Below the pieces are notes generated by a model. The model worked only from the letters and a program-made list of their open reading frames with translations. It ran no database searches and was not told where the DNA came from. Shown here one piece after another: positions 12,170-25,668 of a stretch of DNA of 35,115 nt (its first letter is position 1; every line of letters starts with the position of its first letter). Source of the DNA: a bacterium (GTDB lineage Bacteria; Actinomycetota; Thermoleophilia; Solirubrobacterales; 70-9); contig JAHEXU010000009.1 in assembly GCA_023251975.1 (NCBI GenBank), positions 1 to 35,115 on the forward strand, given 5' to 3'. The position numbers were made by a program, and so were the translations under genes.

Positions 12170-13063
12170 TCAAGGAATGTTGCGGCTGCTCTCGCAGTTG
12201 GAGGCGCTATCGCCGTTGTTGGGGCCGCCACCATCGCACTCGTCGTTACCGTTGCCGCCGTCGAGCCGGTCTTTTTGGTCGCCGCCGAACAGGAAGTCGT
12301 CGTCGTTGCCGCCGATCAAGCGATCGTCACTGCCGCCGCCAAACAGGCGGTCGTTACCACCGCGGCCACGCAGAATGTCGATACCGACATCGCCGAAGAT
12401 GTGATCGGCCTTCTCGGAACCGATGATCGTGTCGTCTTGATAGCCACCGTCGAACATCGCCGGGGCGATCAACGGAGTCCGGGTCAGCAGGATGTCGTCC
12501 TCGGAGCCTCCGAGCACCGTGTCGGCCCCACCCGCTTCGACCCGATCGTCGGTAAAGCCACCGTCGATCGTGTCGATCCCGTCGGCAACGATCTTGCCGG
12601 CGCGACGACCCCAGCCGTAAACCTTGTCTTCGCCGGCGCTGCCGAGCGCGTAGTCGTCGCCGGGACCGGGGATCAGGATGTCGTTGCCCTCCTCGCCGTA
12701 AAGCAGATCGCGTCCCGGGCCGCCGTAGAGGATGTCGTTCCCGACGCCGCCGCAGATGATGTCGTTGCCCTCGTCGCCGTAGACGATGTCGTTGTCGCGA
12801 CCACCGTTGACGAGGTCGGCGCCGCCGCCGCCGTGGATTCGGTCGTTGCCGCCAAGCCCGTTGACCTTTTGTCTTCCGTCACCGAAGCGGACCTGATCGC
12901 GGTCATTGGTCAGCTCCTGGGAGCGGCGCTTGCACTCCGGCTGCTCTTGCCCATGTGCGGTCGGGACGCCGATCACCGCGATCGCGAAGCCGACGACAAC
13001 CGTGGTCAGGAGCAATCCATTGGCTCGAATAAACCCGACAAACTTGTAATCAAATCCCTGCAT
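12170..13063 (-). CDS. Secreted RTX-repeat calcium-binding protein
   Basis: The 297-residue protein starts MQGFDYKFVGFIRANG, followed by a hydrophobic core and TAHG-QE, a standard signal peptide cut near residue 39. The rest is mostly RTX nonapeptide repeats of the type GGxGNDxLx: GGNDRIHGGGGADLVNGG, then YGDEGNDIICGGVGNDILYG and many more. These fold into parallel beta-rolls that bind Ca2+ outside the cell. No protease, lipase or adhesin domain is attached, so the protein is a bare beta-roll. It is divergent from the carboxypeptidase gene with 75 bp between starts. The long open frame that continues upstream to 13696 is only a shadow of that gene. Three shorter frames on the opposite strand are artefacts of the repeat composition. 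Confidence 0.85.
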   Translation of the reverse strand: MQGFDYKFVGFIRANGLLLTTVVVGFAIAVIGVPTAHGQEQPECKRRSQELTNDRDQVRFGDGRQKVNGLGGNDRIHGGGGADLVNGGRDNDIVYGDEGNDIICGGVGNDILYGGPGRDLLYGEEGNDILIPGPGDDYALGSAGEDKVYGWGRRAGKIVADGIDTIDGGFTDDRVEAGGADTVLGGSEDDILLTRTPLIAPAMFDGGYQDDTIIGSEKADHIFGDVGIDILRGRGGNDRLFGGGSDDRLIGGNDDDFLFGGDQKDRLDGGNGNDECDGGGPNNGDSASNCESSRNIP

Positions 13064-13138
13064 AGGCCCCCAAAGCCTAGCGGACCGGCTGCGGTAATCG
13101 GCGGATGCGGCCCGCGATCCGGCTAGCTTGGGTAGAGG

Positions 13139-15244
13139 ATGAACCCTCGTTTCACCGCCCTGATAGTCGGATCTGCGCTTGGCCTCGTGGTCGGCCTGAG
13201 CGAATCGGCGAGCGCCCGCGAGGCGCTGCGGACCGCCGTCAGCGCCACCGAGCGCGACGCGATCTGCACCGAGCGCCCGCTCGACGGCGCCTACCAAGCC
13301 ACGCTCCGCAGCCCCGCCCTCAGCACGGTGACGGCGCGACTTGACGGCGGCAGTGGCGACTGGGACCTGGCGCTTTACAGCGGCCGCGATCACTCGGTCA
13401 TCGCCGGCTCCACCTACCGCGGCCCGACCGAGGTGGCGAGCGGCTACTCGCTGGTCGGCGAGCGCTTGATCGTCCAGGTCTGCCGTCTCCCCGGCGCCTC
13501 GGGCAAGCCGACCCTGAGCGTCGATTTCAACCGGATCAACCCCGCGGTCGACCCACCGCCGCCGACGCTTTTGCGGGTCGCAACCGCGACCGATGAGGAG
13601 CGGGCGCGCTTGGCGGCGAGCGGGCTCGATATCACCGAGAGTGTTGGGCCCGATTGGGTTGATGTCCTCGCCTACGGAGCCGAGGAGCGCCGCCATCTGA
13701 CCAGGCTGGGGCTCTCCTACTCGACCCTAATCGGCGATCTGACCCGACGGAGCGCCCGCGATCGAGCAGGCGAGACGGCGACTCCCCAAGCCAGCCCGAG
13801 GACCTCGACCGCCGGATTCCCGTCCGGTCGCAGCGGCACCTACCGGCGCCTGTTCGACTACACCACCGAACTGAAGGCGCTGGCCGATGCCAACCCCGGG
13901 ATCGTCCGGCTGATCACCCTTCCCGAGCGCACCTACCTGGGCCGACCGGTCGAGGGGATCGTGATCAGCCGTCGCCCCGCGGTCAACAACAGCCGCCCCA
14001 CCTTCTTGCAGTTGGGGGTCCACCACAGCCGCGAATGGCCGTCGGGCGAGCACGCGCTGGAGTGGGGTTACGAGCTGATCAACGGCTACAACGCGGGCGA
14101 TCCGAAGGCGCTTCGCCTGGTCCGAAAGACGAAGACGATCATCATTCCGATCGTCAACCCGGACGGCTTCAACGCCTCGCGCGAAGCAGGCGAGCTGCAG
14201 GGGGCGGCGGGCGGTCGCGGCGGCACCGACGAATCCGCCAACATCGTCTCGCACCTCGCCGAGTACAAGCGCAAGAATTGCCGCCTGGTCGACGATTCGC
14301 CAGCTGGCAACTGCAACCAACCGGCGCTCGGCACGGCCGAAGCGGGCGTCGACCCAAACCGAAACTACGGCGGGCTGTGGGGCGGCCCCGGCGCCGGCAC
14401 CAGCCCGACCGCGCCAGATTACCGAGGCCCGGGGCCGTTCTCGGAGCCGGAGACCCGCAACATCAAAGACCTGATCTCCCACAATCAGGTGACGGCGCTG
14501 GTTACCAACCACAGCTACGCTGGGCTGGTCCTGCGCCCGCCCGGCCTCGCGGGCGACGCCGACGTAATCGACGAGCCGCTCCTAGAGCGCCTCGGCGAAC
14601 GGATGGCGAGGCAGAACGGCTACGCAAACCAGCACGACTACAACCTCTATGACACCACCGGGACGACCGAGGACTGGGCCTACCTGACCGCTGGCGCGCT
14701 CGCCTACACCTTCGAGATCGGGCCGCGCAACTTCCACCCGCCGTACTCGGAGACGATCGACGAATGGCGTGGCACCTCGCCGCTGACCCCGGCGGGCGGC
14801 GGCGGCAACCGCGCCGCCTACTACCGAATCGCCACCACCGTCCTCCGGCGCCGCAGCCACGCCACGATCTTCGGACGGGCGCCCAAACGCGGCAAGGTCG
14901 TGATCAAGAAGTCGCTCCTGACCGCGACCTCGCCGGTGATCAACCAAAACGGCGTGGCCGGCGCGGTGATCAGGTTCCAAGATCGACTCCGCTCGGCCGC
15001 CCGAATCCATCGCGACGGCAGCTTCAAGTTCGCGATCAACCCCTCGACCCGACCGTTGGTCGCAAGGCCGGGCGGTCGCCAAAGCAGCGGCGGCGCCAGC
15101 CGCGAACGTTGGACGATCGTCTGTCACAACCGCGACGGTCGGCGAACCGGCAAGCGCAAGCTCTACATCGAACGCGGCGAGGTCAAGCACCTCGACCTGC
15201 GCCACCACTGCGGTCGCAAGCGGTCGCGACCGGCGCCCAAATAA
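13139..15244 (+). CDS. Secreted M14-family zinc carboxypeptidase
   Basis: This 701-residue protein begins with a signal peptide (MNPRFTALIVGSALGLVVG, cut near SESASA). An N-terminal beta-rich region follows (about 30-220), then a zinc carboxypeptidase domain (about 235-570) and a basic C-terminal beta domain. Zinc ligands are H296 and E299 in VHHSREWPSGE and H458 in TNHSYAG. Catalytic Glu526 lies in TFEIGPRNFHPPY, and D-P-N-R-N-Y-G supplies the substrate-carboxylate residues. It should remove C-terminal residues from extracellular peptides. The divergent RTX gene is also secreted and may share the 75-bp promoter region. The C-terminal tail is rich in Lys, Arg and His and could bind the cell surface. 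Confidence 0.9.
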   Translation: MNPRFTALIVGSALGLVVGLSESASAREALRTAVSATERDAICTERPLDGAYQATLRSPALSTVTARLDGGSGDWDLALYSGRDHSVIAGSTYRGPTEVASGYSLVGERLIVQVCRLPGASGKPTLSVDFNRINPAVDPPPPTLLRVATATDEERARLAASGLDITESVGPDWVDVLAYGAEERRHLTRLGLSYSTLIGDLTRRSARDRAGETATPQASPRTSTAGFPSGRSGTYRRLFDYTTELKALADANPGIVRLITLPERTYLGRPVEGIVISRRPAVNNSRPTFLQLGVHHSREWPSGEHALEWGYELINGYNAGDPKALRLVRKTKTIIIPIVNPDGFNASREAGELQGAAGGRGGTDESANIVSHLAEYKRKNCRLVDDSPAGNCNQPALGTAEAGVDPNRNYGGLWGGPGAGTSPTAPDYRGPGPFSEPETRNIKDLISHNQVTALVTNHSYAGLVLRPPGLAGDADVIDEPLLERLGERMARQNGYANQHDYNLYDTTGTTEDWAYLTAGALAYTFEIGPRNFHPPYSETIDEWRGTSPLTPAGGGGNRAAYYRIATTVLRRRSHATIFGRAPKRGKVVIKKSLLTATSPVINQNGVAGAVIRFQDRLRSAARIHRDGSFKFAINPSTRPLVARPGGRQSSGGASRERWTIVCHNRDGRRTGKRKLYIERGEVKHLDLRHHCGRKRSRPAPK

Positions 15245-15468: not shown

Positions 15469-17601
15469 ATGAGCACCCGGACCCGAGCCCACAACGTCAC
15501 CGCCGCGCAGTGGAGCGCCAACGGCGACGCGATCGGCACGATCGACCTGAGCAAGCAGGAGAACATCCCGTTCGGGAGCAACGTCTTCTCGCTGAAAGAG
15601 CAGCGGACCCGGCTCTCGGCCGACACCGTGGGACGGCTCGAACAGACGCTCGCGAAGGGTGCGGCGCTCGATCCGGCGCTGGCCGACGAGATCGCAGCGG
15701 CGATGAAGGACTGGGCGCTGGAGCGGGGCGCCACCCACTACACCCACGTCTTCCAGCCGCTGACCGGCCTGACCGCCGAAAAGCACGACTCCTTCCTCTC
15801 CCCCGACGGCGAGGGCGGCGCGCTCGCCGACTTCTCCGGCAAGGAGCTGATCCAGGGCGAGCCGGACGCCTCGTCGTTTCCGACCGGTGGAATACGCGCA
15901 ACCTTCGAGGCCCGCGGCTACACCGCCTGGGACCCGACCAGCCCGGCCTTCATCCTCGAGAATCCAAACGGCGCCCTGCTTTGCATCCCGACCGCCTTCG
16001 CCTCCTGGACCGGCGAGGCCCTCGACGCCAAGATCCCGCTGCTACGTTCGATGGACGCGCTCTCAAAGGTCGCGATCCGGGCGCTGCGGGTGCTCGGGGA
16101 CGACGACTCCGAGCGGGTCTTTACGACGGTCGGACCGGAGCAGGAGTACTTCCTGATCGACGAGCAGTACTACTACGAGCGTCCCGACCTCTACACGACC
16201 GGTCGCACCCTGTTCGGCGCCAAGCCGCCGAAGGGCCACGAGCTCGACGACCACTACTTCGGCGCGATTCCGGAGCGGATCCTCGCCTGCATGATGGAGT
16301 CCGAGCGGGAGCTACAAAAGCTCGGCGTCCCGGTCACGACCCGCCACAACGAGGTCGCGCCGAGCCAGTACGAGCTGGCGCCGATCTTCGAGAACTCGAA
16401 CGTCGGCTCCGACCACCAGCAACTGACGATGCAGATCATGCAGTCGGTTGCCCGCAAGTACGGGTTGGTCTGCCTGCTCCACGAGAAGCCGTTCGCCGGC
16501 GTCAACGGCTCCGGCAAGCACAACAACTGGTCGATGGGAACCGACCGCAAGCACAACCTGCTCGACCCGGGCGACACCCCGGCCGACAACACCAGCTTCC
16601 TGTTCTTTTGCACCGCCGTAATCAAAGCGGTCAACAAGCATCAGGGTCTCTTGCGGGCCTCGGTCGCCAACATCGGCCAGGATCACCGGCTCGGAGCCAA
16701 CGAGGCGCCGCCCGCGATCATCTCGATCTTCCTCGGCGCCGAGCTCGAGAAGGTCTTCGAAGCGATCGCAACCGGATCCGGCGACCCCCACACCCCGGCC
16801 TCGTTCCTCGAACTCGGAGCCGAGGTGCTGCCGCCGCTACCGATGGACGGCGGCGACCGCAACCGGACCTCGCCGTTCGCTTTCACCGGCAACAAGTTCG
16901 AGTTCCGGGCGCTCGGTTCGAGCATGTCGCTCGCCTTCCCCAACGCGGTCCTCAACACGATCGTCGCCGAAGCAGTCGACGAGATGGTCGATGCGGTCGA
17001 AGCCAAGGCCGGCGATGCCTCCGAGGCGATCATCGAGGTCGTCAAGGAGACCTATCTGGCCAACAAGATCATCTGCTTCATGGGCGACAACTACTGCGAG
17101 GAGTGGCACGCCGAAGCCGAGGCGCGCGGGTTGAAGAACCTGCGCACTACCCCGGATGCGCTGCCCGAGGTGACCGCCGCGAGCACCATCGCCGCCTTCG
17201 GACACTACGACGTGCTATCCGAGCGCGAGCTCGAATCACGATTCGAGGTCTGGATTGAGCAGTACGTGATCAAGGCCAACATCGAGGCCGAGACCGGCGA
17301 GTCGATTGCCCGCACGCTGATCCTGCCGGCGGCGCTTCGCTTCGCCGCGCTGGCTGACGGAACCAAGGCGGGCGCCGCGACCAAGTCGCTGATCGGCCAG
17401 TTGGAGACCACGATCGAGGCGTTGGCCGCGGCCAACCACTACCCCGATGGGGCCGAGGGCACCGAACTGGCGATTCACGCCCGTGACAAACAACTGGTTG
17501 CGCTGGCCGCGGTCCGCGAGGTGGTTGACCAGCTCGAAGGGATCGTCGCCGACGACCTCTGGCCGCTTCCGAAGTACTCCGAGATCCTGTTCGTCAAGTA
17601 A
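15469..17601 (+). CDS. glnN: Glutamine synthetase, type III
   Basis: At 710 residues this is the long GSIII form, not the ~450-residue GSI. It joins ammonia to glutamate with ATP to give glutamine and forms large cytoplasmic rings. Recognised stretches in order: [10 protein letters not shown] near the N-terminus, [11 protein letters not shown] (metal-binding Glu), [33 protein letters not shown] and [17 protein letters not shown]. The C-terminal extension is characteristic of GSIII. ATG 15469 follows GAAGGA. A short leader frame precedes it, hinting at translational control. The TAA stop is formed by the first bases of a 165-bp palindromic repeat, so the gene's 3' end abuts that element. A long opposite-register frame inside the gene is an artefact. 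Confidence 0.95.
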
Positions 17602-17763
17602 GGGCTCCCGAAAGAATAAGTGCGTCATTTAGGCGGTCGAGGAGCGAGCGGGGCGGTGCCGACGTGAGGCCGTAATAGCAGCGTTATTTCGGTCTTGCGG
17701 CGGTGCAGCATCCGCGACGCTGATCGGCCGCGTAAAGGCGCAGTTATTCTTTCGAGAGCCCTA
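17598..17763. repeat. 165-bp palindromic repeat, copy A
   Basis: This 166-bp element starts at GTAAGGGCTCCCG and ends at AGCCCTA. Its 24-bp ends are inverted repeats with two mismatches (AGGGCTCCCGAAAGAATAAG and its partner). A second pair, TTTAGGCGGTCG with CGGCCGCGTAAA, follows inside, and the centre forms GGCCGTAATA/TTATTTCGGTC. The whole unit can fold into one long imperfect hairpin. It is about 95% identical to copy C at 22563-22727. No open frame lies within it. The synthetase stop codon is its first TAA. Confidence 0.9.
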
Positions 17764-17929
17764 GGTGCCCGCGCGAGGATAAGGGCTCGATTTAGGCGGT
17801 CGAGGATCGAGCGGGGCGGCTGCGGTGTGAGGCCGGAATCGCAGCGCTATTGCGGGCTCGCGACGGCGGCGCATCGGTGACGGTAATCGGCCGCGTAAGC
17901 CGCCCTTATTCTTGCCCCGCCCCAAGGGC
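17764..17929. repeat. 165-bp palindromic repeat, diverged copy B
   Basis: Directly after copy A, this stretch repeats the same layout with many changes: ATTTAGGCGGTCGAGGA, GCGGGGCGG, TGTGAGGCCG, AATCGGCCGCGTAA and an outer pair GATAAGGGC/GCCCTTATT. The outer stem keeps pairing although its bases differ from copy A (for example T-A replaced by G-C), which suggests the fold is under selection. Its edges are less sharp than those of copies A and C. Confidence 0.7.
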
Positions 17930-17967
17930 CCGAACGACCGGCGGGGGCCGACAAGCGGGGGGCCAAC

Positions 17968-17985
17968 AGGAGCGGGTCCGCTCCT
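17968..17985. promoter_or_regulatory. Palindrome AGGAGCGG-GT-CCGCTCCT upstream of SCP2 gene
   Basis: A perfect 8-bp inverted repeat with a 2-bp centre lies 93 bp before the SCP2 start. A two-base centre suits a protein-binding operator better than an RNA hairpin. No regulator is apparent. Confidence 0.3.
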
Positions 17986-18077
17986 TCCCGGTCAATCCCG
18001 CGGCGGCGGCTCCGCGGGCGGGGCCGCTCGAGGTCGGCGGAAGCCCGACGCGGCAAAGTTCCGTCAGACTTCGGCCG

Positions 18078-18509
18078 GTGAAACGAGGACCAATCGTCGA
18101 GCGGGCCGCGTCGGCGGTGCGGGGGCTTCCGGCTCCGGTGCGCGGGTTCCTAACCACCTCGCCGACCCGCCACCTGGTGGCGGCACAAATCTTCCGCGCC
18201 ATGGAGTCCCAGTTCTCCGCCGAAGCCGCCCACGGCCTCAACACGGTGGTTGCCTGGAAGCTGCGCCAAGCTGAGGGCGCCGAGCGGGTCTGGTATTTGA
18301 CCATCGGCGCGGGGCGCTGCAAGGCGTCGCGCCGGCCGCCGGAGGACCCGCCGACCCTCACTCTGACGATGGATCACCGCACCCTGCTGGACCTCGCAAC
18401 CGGGGCCGAGAATGGGCCGAAGCTGTTGATGGCCGGGCGACTCGGGATCGACGGCGACCTGCTGCTGGCGCAGCGCCTGACAACGCTGTTTCGAATTCCC
18501 GGCCATTGA
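18078..18509 (+). CDS. SCP2 sterol-binding domain protein
   Basis: The 143-residue protein is an SCP2-type lipid-binding domain. NTVVAWKLRQ, V-W-Y-L-T-I-G-A-G-R-C, P-P-T-L-T-L-T-M-D-H-R-T and L-L-M-A-G-R-L-G-I-D-G-D-L-L-L-A-Q-R-L follow the family's strand-helix order. The last is the typical final helix-and-strand segment. Such proteins bind acyl-CoAs or other lipids in a hydrophobic tunnel. I choose GTG 18078 because the frame further upstream crosses the palindromic repeat and is not protein-like; a later ATG near 18200 would start right at the domain. It ends 47 bp from the convergent propeller gene. Confidence 0.75.
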   Translation: MKRGPIVERAASAVRGLPAPVRGFLTTSPTRHLVAAQIFRAMESQFSAEAAHGLNTVVAWKLRQAEGAERVWYLTIGAGRCKASRRPPEDPPTLTLTMDHRTLLDLATGAENGPKLLMAGRLGIDGDLLLAQRLTTLFRIPGH

Positions 18510-18556
18510 GCGGGGGCGCGGTAGCCGCGACCGGCCCAGCGCCCGCCCACCTCACA

Positions 18557-19966
18557 TCAACGCTTGATCCGAAAACTCTTCGCTTCGGCGGTCGCATCGA
18601 GGTTGCCGAAACTATCTTGGGCGCGAACCTCGAAGCGATGACGGCCGGGCTCAAGATTCCGCAGGGTCTTGGGAGAGCTGCAGGCGGCGGGCTTTTGATC
18701 GTCAAGCGCGCACCTGAAGGTGAGCGCATCGGAGGGGTCGAGGTCATCGGCAGCGGTAAAGCGGAAGCGGGCGATGCCCTTGCGGGGTCGAATCGTGGCC
18801 CCGAGAAGGATCGTCACCGGCGGAGCGGTCAAATCTCGAGCGAAGGTGGCCACGGCGTTGTCCGAACCACTGGTCGCGTAGACGTGCTTGCCGTCAGGCG
18901 AGACGATGACGCCGCGGGCGCCGCCGAGGCCGTCGACCCCATCGACGCCATCCTTCAAAAGATCAACCGGGGTTAGCCCGCCGCCGCTCGGGTCGCGCGC
19001 GAAGGCGACGATCGCGTTGTCGGAGATACCGGCCGCGTAGACGTGCTTGCCGTCGGCGGAGGCAGCGATGCCAAACGCCGCATCAAGCCCGTCGACCCCG
19101 CCGACCCCGTCCTTGACTAGACCAAGGAAACCCAGTCGCCCGGTGGTCGGGTTCCGCGAAAAGGTGGACACGGAGTCGTCCAAGAAGCCGGTCGCGTAGA
19201 CCTGCTCGCCGTCCGGCGGGATGGCGAGGAACTCGGGTCCGTCAAGGCCATCGACCCCGCCGAAGCCGTCCCGTAGCGCCGTAACGAAGCCGAGCTGGCC
19301 GGTCGTCGGGTTGCGCGAGAAGGTGCTCAGGGCGTCCTCATCGGTTGCCGCCACGTAGACCTGCTTGCCGTTCGGTGCGACGACGATGCCAGCGGCGCCG
19401 TCGAGCCCATTGACCCCGCCGACGCCGTCCTTGCGGGCGCCGAGGAAGGACAGCCGACCGTTGGCCGGGTTGCGCGCAAAGGCGGCCACTGCGTCATCGC
19501 TGCCACCGGTCGCGTAGACATGCTTGCCGTCGGGAGCGACCGCGACGGAGTTGGCACCGTTGAGCCCGTCCACCCCGCCGACGCCGTCCTTCACTTGCTC
19601 GACGAAGGTCAAGCGGCCGCTGGTCGGGTTGCGCGCGAAGGTGACGAGCGCGTCGTCGGCAAAGCTGGCCGCGTAGACCTGCTTGCCGTCCGGCGAAACG
19701 ACGACGCCCTGGGGCGCCGCGAGCCCGTCGACCCCGTCGACGCCGTCCCGCCAAAGGTCAACGAAGCTCAAGCGGCCGGTGGAAGGGTTGCGCGAGAAGG
19801 CGGCCAGCGCGTTGTCGCTAAAGCCGGTGACATAGACATGCTTGCCGTCCGGCGAGACGGCGGCCCGCTCCGCCCCGCGGAGGCCGTCAACCCCAGCGAC
19901 GCCATCCTCGACGACCGAGACAAAGCCGAGTTCGCCGGCCGCGCCCAGGGCCGAGCCAGCGCCCAC
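18557..19966 (-). CDS. Seven-repeat beta-propeller protein with C-terminal Ig-like domain; N-terminus out of frame
   Basis: Seven repeats of about 54 residues form a complete propeller. Each reads roughly LGFV-DGVGGVDGL-GA-VSPDGKHVYATG-SDNAV-FARNP-TGR; the SPDGKHVY strand is typical of lactonase/YVTN propellers. After residue ~390 comes an Ig-like domain with FRCALDD and a paired Cys, as in secreted actinobacterial proteins. The repeated DGVGGVDGL loop is unusual and could bind Ca2+. The frame continues upstream through R-D-R-R-W-R-T-L-V-W-I-A-I-A-A-L-A-V-G-A, a good signal peptide, but without any ATG, GTG or TTG before a TAG near 20110. The in-frame GTG 19966 would skip the signal. A GTG at 20094 is one frame off, and loss of one 11-bp repeat unit would join it. 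Substrate unknown. Confidence 0.75.
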   Translation of the reverse strand: MGAGSALGAAGELGFVSVVEDGVAGVDGLRGAERAAVSPDGKHVYVTGFSDNALAAFSRNPSTGRLSFVDLWRDGVDGVDGLAAPQGVVVSPDGKQVYAASFADDALVTFARNPTSGRLTFVEQVKDGVGGVDGLNGANSVAVAPDGKHVYATGGSDDAVAAFARNPANGRLSFLGARKDGVGGVNGLDGAAGIVVAPNGKQVYVAATDEDALSTFSRNPTTGQLGFVTALRDGFGGVDGLDGPEFLAIPPDGEQVYATGFLDDSVSTFSRNPTTGRLGFLGLVKDGVGGVDGLDAAFGIAASADGKHVYAAGISDNAIVAFARDPSGGGLTPVDLLKDGVDGVDGLGGARGVIVSPDGKHVYATSGSDNAVATFARDLTAPPVTILLGATIRPRKGIARFRFTAADDLDPSDALTFRCALDDQKPAACSSPKTLRNLEPGRHRFEVRAQDSFGNLDATAEAKSFRIKR

Positions 19967-20025
19967 GGCCAGCGCGGCGATCGCGATCCAAACCAGGGTC
20001 CGCCAGCGTCGATCTCGCGAGGAGC

Positions 20026-20058
20026 GAAGCGGCCGCGAAGCGGCCGCGAAGCGGCGGC
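20026..20058. repeat. 11-bp tandem repeat (3 units) at the start of the propeller gene
   Basis: GAAGCGGCCGC occurs at 20026-20036 and 20037-20047, with a third unit differing by one base at 20048-20058. Eleven is not a multiple of three, so gain or loss of a unit shifts frame. It lies between the GTG at 20094 and the signal-peptide codons of the propeller gene. Confidence 0.8.
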
Positions 20059-20171
20059 TTCGTCGCCAGATCTGCCTGCGTCGTTCGAACCCACCTTGCC
20101 CGCCAGTCTACCGCCCCGCCGCTTCGGAACGGCGAGAGTTCGAGACCGCGGCTCGGTTTAGCGCAACCTGA

Positions 20172-20555
20172 TCAGGTGCGCGGGGTGCCGCGGATTCCGA
20201 GGCGCTTACGGGCCTTGCTGACTGCCATCACCGAGCACTGAGCGGCGCGGGCAATCTCACCGTCGCGACGGTCGGGGTCGCGGCGAATCTCAAACTCCAA
20301 GACGGCCTGCGAGCGGATTTTGGCGCGGCCCTCGGCGGGGGCATCCGGACCCATCTCCTCGAGCGCGTCCTGAACCGCCAGCTCGCGGCGGCACATCAAG
20401 CAGTAGGCGTTGTTGCCGTTTTCGACCCAGTTCGGCGGCGCAGTCGCGGCTTCCTCGCTGGCGATCCAGCGGGTCCGCATCTCGCAGCGCGAGCAGATCC
20501 GCTCGCTCAGGTCGTCTCGGGTCGGGATGATTGTCATCTCAGCGGTCGCGGGCAT
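20172..20555 (-). CDS. Zinc-ribbon plus helix-turn-helix protein of unknown function
   Basis: The 127-residue protein has two cysteine pairs, I-C-S-R-C and Y-C-L-M-C-R-R-E about 30 residues apart, which should form a zinc knuckle. Its C-terminal part, DGEIARAAQCSVMAVSKARK followed by R-L-G-I, reads as a helix-turn-helix. The middle is helical and charged. It is probably a small DNA-binding protein, but I do not recognise the family. The first ATG (20553-20555) follows AAGGAG with a long 14-nt gap; ATG 20535-20537 (MTIIPTRDDLS) is an alternative. It diverges from the acyltransferase gene, with the nested inverted repeats at 20716-20754 between them. Confidence 0.65.
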   Translation of the reverse strand: MPATAEMTIIPTRDDLSERICSRCEMRTRWIASEEAATAPPNWVENGNNAYCLMCRRELAVQDALEEMGPDAPAEGRAKIRSQAVLEFEIRRDPDRRDGEIARAAQCSVMAVSKARKRLGIRGTPRT

Positions 20556-20888
20556 ACGTTTTTCGTCAACTCCTTGTCGGCGTCACCGGCGCCTGCCGGG
20601 TCTCCAATGCCCTGCTTGCGGGGCGATCGGCGGCTTCCGATGGAAAAAAGAGCCGGGCGCCTAGCTGGGCACACCGACCAGAGGCTTAAGAATAACAGCC
20701 ATTGCGGCGGAACTCAAGGTTTGCTCAACAATTTGTTGGATCTGGCTAAACCTTTGCGGATTTTGCGCCGGAACGGAGCTCTGACCGAGCCGGTTCGAGC
20801 GACCGACCGCCCGCGCCGCCGCGGGCAGGGCCGATTTGGGCACCTCACGAGGTCGGCGCCGCGCCCGGGGTCGTAGACTCGCGGCGCG
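20556..20888. other. 333-bp divergent intergenic region with an AT-richer structured core
   Basis: The first and last thirds are GC-rich. The core (about 20660-20790) is much less so and holds the nested inverted repeats listed separately. Frames through it on both strands read superficially like protein but overlap neighbouring genes or lack starts, so I annotate no gene. Confidence 0.45.
20716..20754. promoter_or_regulatory. Nested inverted repeats between HTH gene and acyltransferase
   Basis: AAGGTTT (20716-20722) pairs with AAACCTT (20748-20754), and inside them CAACAA-T-TTGTTG (20726-20738) is a perfect palindrome. The site sits in an AT-richer island between divergent genes, one of which encodes a likely DNA-binding protein. 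It is a good candidate operator for that protein; no terminator features are present. Confidence 0.4.
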
Positions 20889-21737
20889 ATGGCGATCCCG
20901 ACCCCCGCGCCGCCCGAGCGGTTCGAAATTGCGCTGCGAGCGCTCACCCCGTTGCGGGTACTGCACTCGCCGCGCTGCATCGGGATCGAAAACATCCCCG
21001 CTGAGGGCCCGTTTTTGCTGGTCGGCAACCACACCGTGTTCGGGCTACTTGACGCGCCGCTGATGCTCGCCGAAATCTACGAGCAAAGGGGGCGCTTTCT
21101 GCGCTCGCTCGGTGACCACGCCCACTACTCGATCCCCGGCTGGCGCGACCTCCTAAACCGCTACGGCACCGTCCGGGGGACCCGCGAGAACTGTGCCGAG
21201 CTGATGGACGGCGGTGAGCCGATCCTGGTCTTCCCCGGCGGCGGTCGCGAGGTGATGAAGCGAAAGGGCGAGAAATACCGACTGATTTGGAAGGAACGAA
21301 TCGGCTTCGTCGCGATGGCGGCGGCGCACGACTATCCGATCGTTCCGTTCGGTTCGGTCGGGGCCGAAGAGGCCTTCGACATCCACCTCGACGGTGACAG
21401 CCCGCTGATGGCGCCGGCCCGCGCGGTCGCGAAACTGCTGACCGGCCGCGCCGACATGGTGCCGCCGATCGCGACCGGGATCGGCCCGACAATGTGGCCG
21501 CGGCCGGAGCGCTTTTACTTCGGCTTCGGAGCTCCGATCGGGTCCGCCGCGACCGATCCGGAGGACCTGGCCGGATTGCGCCGACTCCGCGAGGTGGTTC
21601 GCGGCGGTGTCGAGAGCGAGATCGCAAAGCTCCTCCTATTGCGCGAGGGCGACCCCGAGCGCTACCCCCCGGCCCGGCTGCGGCGCGGCCTCGAGCAGTC
21701 GCTACGAGGCCTCTTCTCATCCGGTGAGCCAGGGTGA
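20889..21737 (+). CDS. PlsC/DGAT2-like acyltransferase
   Basis: The 282-residue protein belongs to the lysophospholipid/diacylglycerol acyltransferase superfamily. FLLVGNHTVFGLLDAP carries the catalytic His of the first motif with a wider His-Asp spacing than the usual HX4D, as in TMEM68/DGAT2-like members. LVFPGGGREVMKRKGEKYRL is the glycine-rich second block and PIVPFGSVGAEEAF the following one. It should transfer an acyl chain from acyl-CoA to a lipid alcohol at the membrane. The next gene, a thioesterase, starts inside its stop codon (GTGA), so the two are translationally coupled. It is divergent from the zinc/HTH gene. Confidence 0.85.
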   Translation: MAIPTPAPPERFEIALRALTPLRVLHSPRCIGIENIPAEGPFLLVGNHTVFGLLDAPLMLAEIYEQRGRFLRSLGDHAHYSIPGWRDLLNRYGTVRGTRENCAELMDGGEPILVFPGGGREVMKRKGEKYRLIWKERIGFVAMAAAHDYPIVPFGSVGAEEAFDIHLDGDSPLMAPARAVAKLLTGRADMVPPIATGIGPTMWPRPERFYFGFGAPIGSAATDPEDLAGLRRLREVVRGGVESEIAKLLLLREGDPERYPPARLRRGLEQSLRGLFSSGEPG

Positions 21738-22597
21738 GCGAATCGAGCTTCGGCGAGGAGACCCGGGTCGAGCGCCTCGGCGAGGGCCGATGGAGAGGCC
21801 ACTTCAGCCCCCGGTGGTTTGGGCCGCCGGGACCGAACGGTGGCTTTATCGCGGCGTTGATGCTGAGCGCGATCCGGGCCGAACTCGACGACGCCGAGCG
21901 GCTGCCGCGCTCGCTCACCCTGCATTACCCGCAGGCACTGCGCGAGGGACCGGCCGAAGTGCGGCTGCGAACGGTGCGACAGGGCCGCTCCGCCAGCTTT
22001 GTCGAGGGGGAGATGACCCAGGGGGATCGGATCGGCGCCCGGGCGCTTTGCGTCTTGAGCCGCGATTATGCAAGCGAGGTCGAGTTCCATACCGCGGCGC
22101 CGCGGGTTGCACCACCCAACCCGCCCCTCGGCGCAGAACGCGGCGCCACCGATCCCTCTCCACCCGGACCGGCGCTGGCGGGCCGATTGGTAATGGAGCC
22201 TCGCTTCGGGGCTCGTCCGTTCGTCGGCGCCGAGGCCAGCGAGTCGGGCGGCTGGATCAAGACCCGCCTGCCCGCCGAATTGGATCCGGAGCTGCTCTGC
22301 CTCTACTGCGACGCTTGGTGGCCCGCGGTCTTCTCCCACCTGACGCGGCCAATTATGGTCCCGACCCTGGAGCTGACGATCCACTTTCGCGCTCCGATCG
22401 AGCCGACTCCAAATCCTCACGTCCTTCCTCACGTCCTGTGTCGATTCACCACGGCGACAGCGAGCGGCGGCCTGGTCGAGGAAGACGGCCAACTTTGGGA
22501 CGAAAGCGGCAGGCTGCTGGCGCAGTCACGCCAGTTGGCGCTGCTGAGGGAGCCGCCGCAGGGTAAGGGCTCCCGAAAGAATAAGTGCGTCATTTAG
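21734..22597 (+). CDS. Acyl-CoA thioesterase family protein with repeat-encoded C-terminus
   Basis: The 287-residue protein resembles the double-hotdog TesB/4HBT_3 thioesterases. RWFGPPGPNGGFIAALML is the N-terminal hotdog signature, S-L-T-L-H-Y-P-Q-A and V-E-G-E-M-T-Q-G-D continue it, and L-T-I-H-F-R-A-P-I belongs to the second hotdog. It should hydrolyse acyl-CoA or an acyl thioester. The start GTG at 21734 overlaps the acyltransferase stop by four bases. The last nine residues, GSRKNKCVI, and the TAG stop come from the 165-bp palindromic repeat beginning at 22563. The natural stop codon has therefore probably been replaced when that element arrived. Coupling with an acyltransferase suggests a joint role in lipid making or remodelling. 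Confidence 0.8.
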   Translation: MSESSFGEETRVERLGEGRWRGHFSPRWFGPPGPNGGFIAALMLSAIRAELDDAERLPRSLTLHYPQALREGPAEVRLRTVRQGRSASFVEGEMTQGDRIGARALCVLSRDYASEVEFHTAAPRVAPPNPPLGAERGATDPSPPGPALAGRLVMEPRFGARPFVGAEASESGGWIKTRLPAELDPELLCLYCDAWWPAVFSHLTRPIMVPTLELTIHFRAPIEPTPNPHVLPHVLCRFTTATASGGLVEEDGQLWDESGRLLAQSRQLALLREPPQGKGSRKNKCVI

Positions 22598-22727
22598 GCG
22601 GTCGAGGAGCGAGCGGGGCGGCGCCGACGTGAGGCCGTAATAGCAGGCCATTGCGGTCTTGCGGCGGTGCAGCATCCGCGACGCTGATCGGCCGCGTAAA
22701 GGCGCAGTTATTTTTTCGGGAGCCCTA
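22563..22727. repeat. 165-bp palindromic repeat, copy C
   Basis: This copy is near-identical to copy A, with differences at one base near position 60, a small block at the hairpin tip and two bases near the right end. The inverted ends pair perfectly over the last ten bases (AGGGCTCCCG with CGGGAGCCCT), better than in copy A. It overlaps the end of the thioesterase gene and supplies its stop. Confidence 0.9.
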
Positions 22728-22729
22728 AG

Positions 22730-22768
22730 TTCGGCTCGACCGTGTAGCCGCGTCAAGGTCGAGCCGAA
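22730..22768. terminator. 12-bp perfect hairpin after the thioesterase gene
   Basis: TTCGGCTCGACC (22730-22741) and GGTCGAGCCGAA (22757-22768) are exact complements around a 15-nt loop. It lies two bases after repeat copy C and between convergent genes, so it probably ends transcription from one or both sides. There is no T-run. Confidence 0.5.
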
Positions 22769-22836
22769 ACGGGACGGGTTCGAGCGGCGGGAACAGGCGC
22801 TGGCTCTCGCACAGCATTCCGGCCGCGATCGGTTCG

Positions 22837-23880
22837 TTAGCGCGAGTCGAAAGCCTTGATCGCCGCGCCCAAAACAGCAAGCATCCGAGCGGCCTGAGTG
22901 TTGACATCGTGGCGGGCGGCGGCGGCGCGGGCGGCGGGATTTGGCGCGGGCATCGCGGCAGCCCTTTGCAGGGCGCCAAGCAGCGCATCCGGATCGGTGG
23001 GATCGATCAAGATCCCGGCTTCGGCGTCGACGAATTCCGGTGGACCGCCGAGCTTGGTGGCGATCACCGAGCGTTCCATCGCCATGCCTTCGAGCGTCGC
23101 CTGACCGAACGGCTCGATCAGCGAAGGCTGGCAAAGGACATCGCAGGCGGCGACCCAGCGCGGCACCTCGGTCGGATCGATCCGACCCGCCAGGTGGACT
23201 CCTTCGCGGCCTGCCAGGGCCGAGCGCAGCGGACCATCACCGACGAAAGCGAGGCTGCCGCGGCCGAACCTGGCAAAGGCATCGGCCAGCCCGACCACGT
23301 TCTTTCGCTCGATCAGGGAGCCGACGCAAACAAAGGCGGTCCGCTCGGCCCCCCACCCCAGCTCGGCGCGGGCGGACGCCTGATCGCGCGGAGCGAAGGC
23401 ATCGAGATCGACCCCGCAGTCGATCACCTCAAGCGGGCCGCCGTAGCCGGAGCGCAAACGCAGCTGGGCACCGAGCCAGGCCGAGTTGGCGATCACCGCG
23501 TCGGCGCGGCCGAGCACCCTGGCGGTCGCGGCCCCGACCCCGCGCTTATGGCCAATGTTCGCGACATCCTGGCCATGCGCCATCACCACCAGCGCCGCCC
23601 CGCTTGCCCGCGCGGCGGCGACACCAACGGCTCCGGCCGGGAACAACATGTGGGCGAAAACGACCTCGGGGCGGGTCCGGCGCGCGTCGGCGATCGCCCG
23701 CCCCAAAAGCCCGGCGTACTTGTGCGGCCGCCCGCCTCGGGTCGTGATCGCGCTGACCCCGACCTGGTGGCCAGCCGCTTCGAAGCGGTCGCGCAACGGC
23801 ACCAAGAAGCTGCCGAAATCAGGATCGGAGGGGCCTGGCCACATCTGCGTGACGAGCTGAATACGCACCCTCACAATCAT
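22837..23880 (-). CDS. Glycosyltransferase family 4
   Basis: The 347-residue protein has the GT-B layout of family 4. The N-terminal half reads RIQLVTQMWPGPSDPDFGSF, then V-V-F-A-H-M-L-F-P-A-G and V-V-M-A-H-G-Q-D. In the C-terminal half, C-V-G-S-L-I-E-R-K-N is followed by C-Q-P-S-L-I-E-P-F-G-Q-A-T-L-E-G, the E-x7-E nucleotide-sugar motif. It transfers a sugar from a nucleotide donor, probably in the cytoplasm, to a cell-wall, lipid or exopolysaccharide acceptor; the sugar cannot be told. Start at ATG 23878-23880, although GTG 23866-23868 after GTGAGG is also credible. The DAHP synthase gene is divergent, 53 bp away. No other polysaccharide gene is near. Confidence 0.88.
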   Translation of the reverse strand: MIVRVRIQLVTQMWPGPSDPDFGSFLVPLRDRFEAAGHQVGVSAITTRGGRPHKYAGLLGRAIADARRTRPEVVFAHMLFPAGAVGVAAARASGAALVVMAHGQDVANIGHKRGVGAATARVLGRADAVIANSAWLGAQLRLRSGYGGPLEVIDCGVDLDAFAPRDQASARAELGWGAERTAFVCVGSLIERKNVVGLADAFARFGRGSLAFVGDGPLRSALAGREGVHLAGRIDPTEVPRWVAACDVLCQPSLIEPFGQATLEGMAMERSVIATKLGGPPEFVDAEAGILIDPTDPDALLGALQRAAAMPAPNPAARAAAARHDVNTQAARMLAVLGAAIKAFDSR

Positions 23881-25008: not shown

Positions 25009-25466
25009 TCAGCCGCAGACCGGCCAGGGGCTGGTCCCCTGGTGGCGCTTCAGCGCAACCGCGACGACCGCTTGCACCTTGTAGCTGTGGTCGATCGGAT
25101 CGCCGCCGGGGGAGCGTGGGGCGCTCCGCCAGGTCTCCCGCATGAACTGGAAGGCGCCTCGGTAAAGGCCGTCGCCGCCGATCGCGTCGGGATCCTTGCC
25201 GGACTCGCAGGTCGCGACGGTCGAAGCCCAATGCTTGTTCTTCTTGGAGACCCGCGACCAGATCTCCTGGTAGCGATCCGGGGTGGCACCGGCGCCAGCG
25301 ACGGTCTGGTCGCGACCGCCTCCGCCTCCACCGCCGCCTCCACCGATCCCGATCCCGCCGCCAGCGGCACCGGCACTACTCGCCCCGAGGGCCAGCAAAG
25401 GGACGCGGCGGTCAGGGTTGAAAACTTCTGCTTGGATATGCCCGTAGCGGGCTGAAGGTTTTTCAT
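25009..25466 (-). CDS. Rpf-like transglycosylase, frameshifted in its signal peptide
   Basis: The C-terminal 75 residues are a resuscitation-promoting-factor-type lysozyme fold: WASTVATCESGKDPDAIGGD with the catalytic Glu, then G-A-F-Q-F-M-R-E-T-W and Q-G-T-S-P-W-P-V-C-G at the end. A glycine run precedes it. Such secreted enzymes cut peptidoglycan. This frame has no start before TTG 25396-25398. An ATG at 25464-25466, right after the riboswitch, opens MKNLQPATGISKQKFSTLTA, a signal peptide one frame away. Adding one base in the CCCTTT run near 25398-25404 joins them as ...TAASLLLALGASSAGAA. I take this as one gene with a frameshift; it could be a true mutation, an assembly slip or programmed. 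Confidence 0.7.
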
Positions 25467-25605
25467 AGCTCTTTTGGTGCCTGCGGGGTTAGCTGACGGG
25501 CTCGCGCCAAAAGAGCTGGCGCTACTCGACCGGTTGGTCGTGATTCGCCCCACTAACGTGGGTCCCCCGCTTGCCCGTGATATTTGACGGGCAACTCGGC
25601 AGTGC
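25467..25605 (-). promoter_or_regulatory. c-di-AMP (ydaO-yuaA type) riboswitch
   Basis: Read on the minus strand, the leader follows the ydaO pattern in order. It starts with TGCCGAG and a hairpin GCCCGT/ACGGGC, then GCGGGGGACCC and GGGGCGAATC. A small hairpin (CGACC/GGTCG) then GAGTA come next, followed by hairpin GCGCCA/TGGCGC and CCCGTCAGCTAACCCCGC-AGGC. The loop of the GCGCCA hairpin (AGCTCTTTTGG) is exactly complementary over 11 bases to CCAAAAGAGCT next to the ATG, the family's closing long-range helix. That helix covers the AAAAGAG ribosome site, so ligand binding should block translation. A possible -10, TAATCT, lies at 25611-25616. In actinobacteria this RNA commonly controls Rpf-like wall hydrolases, as here. 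Confidence 0.9.
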
Positions 25606-25668
25606 GCGGCAGATTAGCAAACTGTTAGCCGGATGTGCGTGCCGCCCGGTATTTCGTCCACCGGCGCC

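What the first reader, a model, noticed from the sequence alone, without database searches (positions are those of the whole stretch)
17598..22727. A three-copy ~165-bp palindromic element that folds into one long hairpin
Copies at 17598-17763, 17764-17929 and 22563-22727 share ends, internal stem blocks and a hairpin tip. Copies A and C are about 95% identical although 5 kb apart; B is diverged. The ends are 24-bp inverted repeats, a second stem (TTTAGGCGGTCG with CGGCCGCGTAAA) lies inside, and the centre pairs too, so the whole unit can be a single RNA or DNA hairpin. It has no ORF. It could be a non-autonomous mobile element (MITE-like) or a spreading structured RNA acting at transcript ends. 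I know of no named family with this sequence.
Basis: partly seen in the sequence, partly recalled or inferred. Interest (0 to 1): 0.75.

Follow-up and report, generated by a model that had tools for sequence, protein, structure and literature searches.

The report
Mobile hairpin with swappable ends
A 160-letter DNA element that folds into one long hairpin has copied itself many times in this bacterium and its relatives; unlike ordinary miniature jumping DNA it keeps its middle and its folded shape while its ends vary, and in two relatives the ends match those of resident jumping genes.

Summary
The three copies are real (A 17602-17761, B 17765-17923, C 22567-22725). The host, a draft assembly near Solirubrobacterales, holds about 60 places. 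They are insertions: 26 of 41 intact copies have an exact 3-bp duplication (25 TNA) against 1-2 of 40-41 in controls, A sits in the end of B, and a relative's copy is absent from two sister genomes at a clean empty site. So it is MITE-like. The surprise lies in the relatives. The family is in 154 of 399 sampled genomes of the class; 52 of 52 kept genomes give one unbranched ~160-nt hairpin (two broken ones were dropped). The centre is conserved and covaries, while the ends differ between genomes yet stay complementary. Departures from pairing in the outer arms are G·T on one strand, 231 against 31 A·C, though singleton mutations make both about equally: source copies seem selected as a folded strand. 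In two genomes the ends equal 15-16 nt of a resident IS982 terminus. Best reading: a non-autonomous transposon with a structured core that borrows ends from resident insertion sequences. No Rfam match; no description found in seven searches.

The parts
17602..17761 (+). copy A of the hairpin element, subfamily A, core strand +
17599..17601 (+). TAA: left target-site letters of copy A; also the stop codon of the glutamine synthetase III gene 15469-17601
17762..17764 (+). TAG: right target-site letters of copy A (one letter off an exact duplication) and left boundary of copy B; copy A lies at the left end of copy B
17765..17923 (+). copy B, older diverged member (subfamily B-like), no exact duplication left
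22567..22725 (+). copy C, subfamily A
22564..22566 (+). TAA: left target-site duplication of copy C
22726..22728 (+). TAA: right target-site duplication of copy C
17647..17716 (+). core cassette of copy A (AGCGGGGC ... CATCCGCG), the part alike across the class
   Evidence: limits read from the sequence

Best explanation
A non-autonomous DNA transposon family of the class Thermoleophilia. Shown: it inserts at TNA (in some relatives CTAG) targets and duplicates them; at ~160 nt it is too short for a transposase; the copies that I kept form one ~160-nt hairpin with a conserved, covarying centre; the ends change between genomes and sometimes within one genome; in two genomes the ends are those of a resident IS982-family element. 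Inferred: resident DDE transposases (IS982 and others with TNA/CTAG targets) cut and paste it in trans by binding the terminal repeats, and a new set of ends lets the same core be carried by another transposase. Also inferred: the element must fold on one strand (as RNA, or as single-stranded DNA during replication) to be copied well, with the core as the working part; inserted copies then drift.
For: Copies: 60 distinct places in the host. Target duplication: 26 of 41 exact, 25 of them TNA; offset controls 1-2 of 40-41. Empty site: the G136 insertion is missing in G129 (94% identical over the joined flanks) and G135 (85%), with 3 extra letters at the filled site. Family: 154 of 399 class genomes, host included; 52 of 52 kept genomes give an unbranched hairpin of 151-165 nt. 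Ends versus centre: information 0.52 against 0.92 bits per column; own outer arms pair at -54.9 kcal/mol, arms swapped between genomes -26.6, shuffled -24.2; the same in 25 genomes found only with model R2, which has no outer pairs. Strand: outer arms 231 G.T against 31 A.C, singletons 31 and 37. Ends from IS982: G131 (16 nt, IS in L290) and G390 (15 nt, IS in L395), 3 of these letters being target letters; null maximum 8-10 over 20 shuffles (IS982 naming). End/centre exchange: G071, and looser cases in G007 and G029.
Against: The mobiliser of the window's own copies is unknown: the 13 DDE_Tnp_1 and 12 DDE_Tnp_1_4 matches of the host (partly the same places) show no element with GGGCTCCCG / GGGCCCGCG ends, with one exception: on C134 an IS1380-type transposase fragment without its front lies between the end of an A copy and an old copy, 1343 nt apart; I read it as a rearrangement, but it could be a ruined parent. 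IS982 was found in 7 of 12 genomes searched, and only 2 of the 7 have hairpins with its ends; G120, G060 and G095 carry other ends. Strict exchange was met by 4 of 210 same-genome pairs, all in G071. The models find copies by their core, so part of the contrast between centre and ends is built in, and they also set the orientation. The G.U bias is in the outer arms; in the middle zone G.T and A.C are equal (117 and 114). The singletons are from the whole hairpin, not from the outer arms alone. Two fetched hits (L341, L346) are broken hairpins and were left out of the counts. No expression data.
Confidence: 0.57

Rival explanations
1. Ordinary MITE: an internally deleted insertion sequence whose parent is missing from, or ruined in, these draft assemblies. 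The conserved centre is common ancestry, and the varied ends follow the parents' changing terminal repeats.
For: Size, duplications, nesting, copy number and the IS982 end match fit a MITE. Draft assemblies lose repeats. Shorter forms with a central deletion also carry duplications. The C134 unit of the host, an IS1380-type transposase fragment between hairpin ends, could be a ruined parent. The models select for the core.
Against: The centre is more conserved than the ends, the reverse of the TIMEs. The IS982 elements share about 16 terminal letters with the hairpins and show no likeness in the 60-110 nt further in that I looked at by eye. A double-stranded binding site does not explain the one-strand G.U bias.
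Confidence: 0.28
2. A single-stranded DNA element of the REP/IS200 or attC kind, moved by an enzyme that reads the extruded hairpin of one strand.
For: Strand-specific folding also holds with DNA parameters (plus strand better in 52 of 52); conserved unpaired purine motifs in many relatives.
Against: A 3-bp target duplication is not expected of IS200/IS605 or attC insertion (recalled); ends shared with IS982, a DDE-type element (type recalled).
Confidence: 0.12
3. The complementarity of the arms is kept by template switching (quasipalindrome correction), not by selection.
For: Long imperfect palindromes are known to correct their arms by template switching (recalled); arms covary almost fully.
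Against: Correction would be expected to remove the conserved mismatches of the centre and gives no reason for G.U on one strand only; singletons make about as many A.C as G.U. No direct test of templated corrections was made.
Confidence: 0.1
4. A cis-acting RNA, such as a terminator or mRNA 3' stabiliser, kept for the host's benefit.
For: 16 of 41 copies within 60 nt of a gene 3' end against 45 of 277 control sites.
Against: No T-run terminator in window 17300-22900; no clear strand preference; singletons disrupt pairs freely; insertions with duplications.
Confidence: 0.07

Closest known systems
Prokaryotic MITEs in general (review PMC10969869, passages seen)
   Same: Under 500 bp, no transposase, inverted ends, target duplication, many copies, folds as a stem-loop
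   Different: That review calls MITEs typically AT-rich and reports ends and direct repeats of QMITE1 as more conserved than the rest; here the element is G+C rich, the centre is the conserved part, the ends vary, and one strand shows G.U-biased pairing
TIMEs, Tn3-derived miniature elements (PMC4133298, passages seen)
   Same: Nearly constant size, non-autonomous, predicted to fold into stable hairpins, build mosaics
   Different: TIMEs keep conserved Tn3 ends with a less conserved core, a 5-bp duplication, usually single copy; here the reverse, with 3-bp TNA and dozens of copies
MITECca01 of Cardinium (PMC9769881, passages seen)
   Same: Ends very similar to those of an IS982-family element
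   Different: About 240 bp, one lineage, described there as derived from its parent ISCca4; here about 16 terminal letters are shared (two relatives only) and the core is class-wide
PIF/Harbinger Tourist MITEs and IS5-group insertion sequences (recalled)
   Same: 3-bp TNA/TWA duplications
   Different: No matching transposase found for the host copies
REP/REPIN, ERIC, Correia, RUP (recalled, not compared by sequence here)
   Same: Short palindromic interspersed repeats, often near gene ends
   Different: As recalled: other sizes, TA or no duplication, no class-wide structured core

Membership tests
MITE | short (<500 bp), no transposase gene | tested here: met
   151-165 nt in 52 kept genomes; 41 intact host copies are 103-173 nt, 33 of them 155-161
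MITE | terminal inverted repeats | tested here: met
   the whole unit is an inverted repeat
MITE | target-site duplication | tested here: met
   26 of 41 exact 3-bp; controls 1-2 of 40-41. In the window only copy C is exact
MITE | multiple dispersed copies and insertion polymorphism | tested here: met
   60 places in the host; empty site in two sister genomes of G136, one site tested
MITE | ends shared with an autonomous insertion sequence in the same genome | tested here: inconclusive
   met in G131 and G390, 2 of the 7 genomes where IS982 was found; in the host no intact element, only the C134 fragment
MITE | ends conserved, interior free | tested here: not met
   interior more conserved than ends (the models select for the core). 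Treated as a departure inside the kind, since the other features hold
MITE | AT-rich (called typical in the review) | tested here: not met
   GC 0.61, 0.64 and 0.69 for the window copies
IS982-derived MITE | IS982 terminal repeats and CTAG target | tested here: not met
   seen in G131 and G390 copies only; the window copies have GGGC-type ends and TNA targets
Rfam RNA family | covariance-model match | tested here: not met
   no match over the element in the window or in 13 loci
Intrinsic terminator | G+C hairpin followed by a T run | tested here: not met
   window 17300-22900
REP/REPIN | linked RAYT transposase | not tested
   no search for RAYT was made

The most novel reading that the evidence does not exclude
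A transposase-agnostic, structure-based selfish element: a conserved folded core (an RNA, or single-stranded DNA) that lives on by exchanging its terminal repeats and so is carried by unrelated families of bacterial transposases, a bacterial counterpart in spirit of SINEs or viroid-like parasites.
Probability: 0.33. Interest if true: 0.9.

Novelty: new variant of a known kind. Interest (0 to 1): 0.75.

Why it matters
Bacterial miniature transposons are usually seen as decayed insertion sequences with good ends and a worthless middle. Here is a class-wide family where the middle and the folded strand are kept and the ends look like the replaceable part. If right, it is a non-autonomous element not tied to one transposase, and it makes two questions testable: what a folded strand does in DNA transposition, and how such elements change mobilisers. 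It also gives a large alignment for a structured sequence without a match in Rfam 15.

Tried and rejected
A parent insertion sequence in the host: 13 DDE_Tnp_1 and 12 DDE_Tnp_1_4 matches (partly the same places) were scanned for terminal repeats. The only one with hairpin-like ends is the unit on C134 (L061, L096, L099): half of an A copy, an IS1380-family transposase fragment without its front, and an old copy whose own hit spans 165 nt. Its two target triplets differ (TAA and TTA), so I read it as a rearrangement, not as the parent; this is not proved.

Spread outside the class: one exact core pattern gave 0 stretches in the named genome collection and 0 in IMG/VR (records very near the host may be left out there). 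A looser pattern gave 5 IMG/VR stretches whose folding shows no such hairpin, rejected as chance. Plasmids: no match. 80 named loci of up to about 8 kb around glutamine synthetase III: none. Two genomes outside the class but in the phylum do carry it.

Terminator or 3'-end RNA for the host's benefit: weak positional bias, no T run in the window stretch scanned, no clear strand preference. Mutation bias as cause of the G·U excess: singletons show G>A 33 and C>T 20, the wrong direction.

Rows dropped before counts: of the 60 host places, 12 were not given to the script (two of them, on C39 and C153, lay in loci that I held; one search shows them as a short and a broken copy), and 7 of the 48 examined lacked an intact end. 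Of the relatives' hits fetched, L232 (115 nt), L337, L341, L346 and L348 were not put into the set of 123; L341 and L346 are broken hairpins. G018 and G023 have no copy of 150 nt and drop out of the counts of 52.

Literature: seven searches gave no paper on this element among the rows listed. I saw passages of PMC10969869, PMC9769881 and PMC4133298; of the other papers only search listings.
Full report
CHECK. The three copies are real. Without the flanking target letters they are A 17602-17761, B 17765-17923 and C 22567-22725, all +. A and C are 96% identical; B matches A at 79% over 139 nt. A and C fold as single hairpins at -110 and -117 kcal/mol with no shuffle of 200 as stable; B is weaker, 2 of 200. 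No Rfam family covers them (13 further loci).

THE HOST GENOME. The window is contig 159 of a 3.47-Mb, 291-contig assembly. The closest full-length glutamine synthetase III in named genomes is from a Solirubrobacterales metagenome assembly (79%; one 81% match is partial), so the host belongs near that order of the class Thermoleophilia, phylum Actinomycetota; its name is not given. A covariance model of 25 host copies (R1) finds 60 distinct places in the host at E<=0.01, both strands of a place counted once. Subfamily A has 12 copies (ends GGGCTCCCG, 96-100% to copy A); B has ends GGGCCCGCG and is about 80-85% like A; there are older copies and a 113-bp form with a central deletion, seen in four places.

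IT MOVES. I gave the script 48 of the 60 places. In 41 both ends are intact (at least 7 of 8 terminal letters); 26 of these have an exact 3-bp duplication (TAA 11, TTA 8, TCA 3, TGA 3, TTT 1), against 1, 1 and 1 of 41 and 1 and 2 of 40 when the flanks are displaced by 3 to 15 letters. In the window only C is exact. Copy A sits exactly at the left end of B (TAA[A]TAG[B]); a second A copy, on C212, abuts a stretch of about 30 nt like the left end of B. In genome G136 a copy lies at letters 979-1142 of L252; in G129 and G135 the flanks are continuous and the filled site has 3 extra letters, the two triplets (CAA and TAA) now differing by one. This is one site. Together these facts establish insertion.

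WHERE IT LANDS. By a simple codon-based gene call, 16 of 41 copies end within 60 nt of a gene 3' end against 45 of 277 intergenic TNA sites in the same loci; 5 of 41 against 42 of 277 for 5' ends; the stop codon lies in the target triplet in 7 of 41 against 19 of 277; 3 of 41 fall inside a called gene. Copy A uses the TAA stop of the glutamine synthetase gene as its target; the gene ends at the corresponding residue in the 11 full-length relatives that I compared. The core strand agrees with the neighbouring gene in 8 cases, disagrees in 4, and lies between convergent 3' ends in 4. There is no T-run terminator in window 17300-22900. I read the bias as target choice (stop codons contain TNA) and tolerance, not as proof of function.

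THE FAMILY. R1 finds 37 of 232 genomes of the order, host included. A second model from 51 copies (R2), with only 17 central pairs, finds 154 of 399 genomes of the class at E<=1e-5, host included. Of 396 genomes drawn from the phylum 10 match: the host, 7 others of its family, order or class, and 2 outside the class; both of the latter fold into the same kind of hairpin with a similar core. At most 7-12 candidates per genome were scored there, so copy numbers are lower bounds. I fetched mostly the best hits, not a random sample: 123 hairpins from 54 genomes. In the 52 genomes with a copy of at least 150 nt, 52 are single unbranched hairpins of 151-165 nt. Two fetched hits were broken (L341, L346) and had been left out.

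CENTRE KEPT, ENDS CHANGED. Mean information is 0.92 bits per column in the centre and 0.52 in the outer 36+36 columns. Because the models find copies by their core, part of this contrast is built in. The ends of one genome pair with each other (-54.9 kcal/mol) but not with those of another genome (-26.6; shuffled -24.2; 2 of 648 swaps reach the mean of the true pairs), so sequence changed and pairing stayed. The 25 genomes found only with R2, which has no outer pairs, show the same (-53.6, -27.1, -24.3). In the core 13 of 17 pairs have changes on both sides, 92.9% of cells pair, and no shuffle of 500 reaches the score; slides of 1-3 columns drop pairing below 46% (the shuffles do not remove relatedness). 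In 30 of 52 genomes (loose motif) AGGACG-type motifs lie on both arms and face each other, mostly unpaired, in the folds I saw; the window's copies lack them.

ONE STRAND. The strand defined by the core folds better in 52 of 52 genomes (-110 against -86 kcal/mol). In the outer arms departures from Watson-Crick are 231 G·T against 31 A·C (49 of 52 genomes have more G·T; in the R2-only set 24 of 25); in the middle zone they are equal, 117 and 114. Singletons, taken as changes after insertion and drawn from the whole hairpin, give 31 G·U and 37 A·C, and G>A (33) is not rarer than C>T (20). So the bias does not look mutational: the lineage that makes new copies seems selected as a folded strand, while inserted copies drift. 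RNA and single-stranded DNA both fit.

EXCHANGEABLE ENDS. In G131 the hairpins begin (C)TAG|ATGATTGATTCCA; with the target letters TAG this is 16 letters of the terminus of an IS982-family element in the same genome (L290, named by NCBIfam). In G390 15 letters (TAG|AGGCTTGATGTG) equal its IS982 (L395). The longest chance match over all 87 x 2 x 15 comparisons was 8-10 in 20 shuffles. Further in, those elements show no likeness to the hairpins by eye. IS982 was found in 7 of 12 genomes searched; only these 2 have matching hairpin ends, and G120, G060 and G095 carry other ends. An 11-letter likeness between G070 ends and an IS1182 of G071 is suggestive only. In G007 one centre occurs with ends GTGACTATCC and GGCCTATCCC; G071 has one end with two centres and one centre with several ends; G029 has related cases. 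By strict thresholds 4 of 210 same-genome pairs qualify, all in G071.

READING. A MITE by behaviour, with two unusual features: the core and the fold are what is kept, and the ends look replaceable. The likely mechanism is mobilisation in trans by resident DDE transposases through borrowed terminal repeats; the need for a folded strand is inferred from the G·U bias. The host's own mobiliser was not found; the one candidate, an IS1380-type fragment between hairpin ends on C134, lacks its front and has unequal target triplets. TIMEs show the opposite pattern (conserved ends, freer core; PMC4133298, passages), and an IS982-derived MITE is known from Cardinium (PMC9769881, passages).

LIMITS.

Noticed in passing
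window 25462-25611 (-): c-di-AMP riboswitch (ydaO/yuaA leader), 75.5 bits, the only Rfam match in the window at gathering score.
   Followed up: no
window 18837-19931, ORF 18557-19966 (-): Direct repeats with a period of 159 nt (six copies in register) inside an ORF with Lactonase beta-propeller matches.
   Followed up: no
window 12170-13696 (-): RTX calcium-binding repeat protein (HemolysinCabind, 4 stretches).
   Followed up: no
window 21734-22597 (+): The acyl-CoA thioesterase reading frame runs about 31 nt into copy C, which supplies its last codons and stop.
   Followed up: partly
L065, L067, L077: Another G+C-rich repeat (GTGAATCCGC ... CGCGGGGTGGCGCCCCGG ... GGATTCGCCGG, with variations) lies beside fragments that end like the hairpins.
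   Followed up: no
L433, L434 (similar in L435): In G137 some hairpins contain a nested shorter palindrome (about 60 nt, TCGGGCTTGCGGCCCGCTCGGCATCC...), giving forms of about 226 and 286 nt with the same ends.
   Followed up: partly
L022/L050 (host C213) and L266/L308 (G007): Hairpins abut other insertion sequences and share the TNA letters with them; the one in L050 is IS701 by NCBIfam, that in L308 was not scanned.
   Followed up: partly
L061 1675-3025: Half of an A copy joined to an IS1380-family transposase fragment lacking its front, then an old copy; a possible ruined parent or a rearrangement.
   Followed up: partly
L363-L366 (G095): Four contigs end inside a hairpin copy, as if the repeat broke the assembly.
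   Followed up: no
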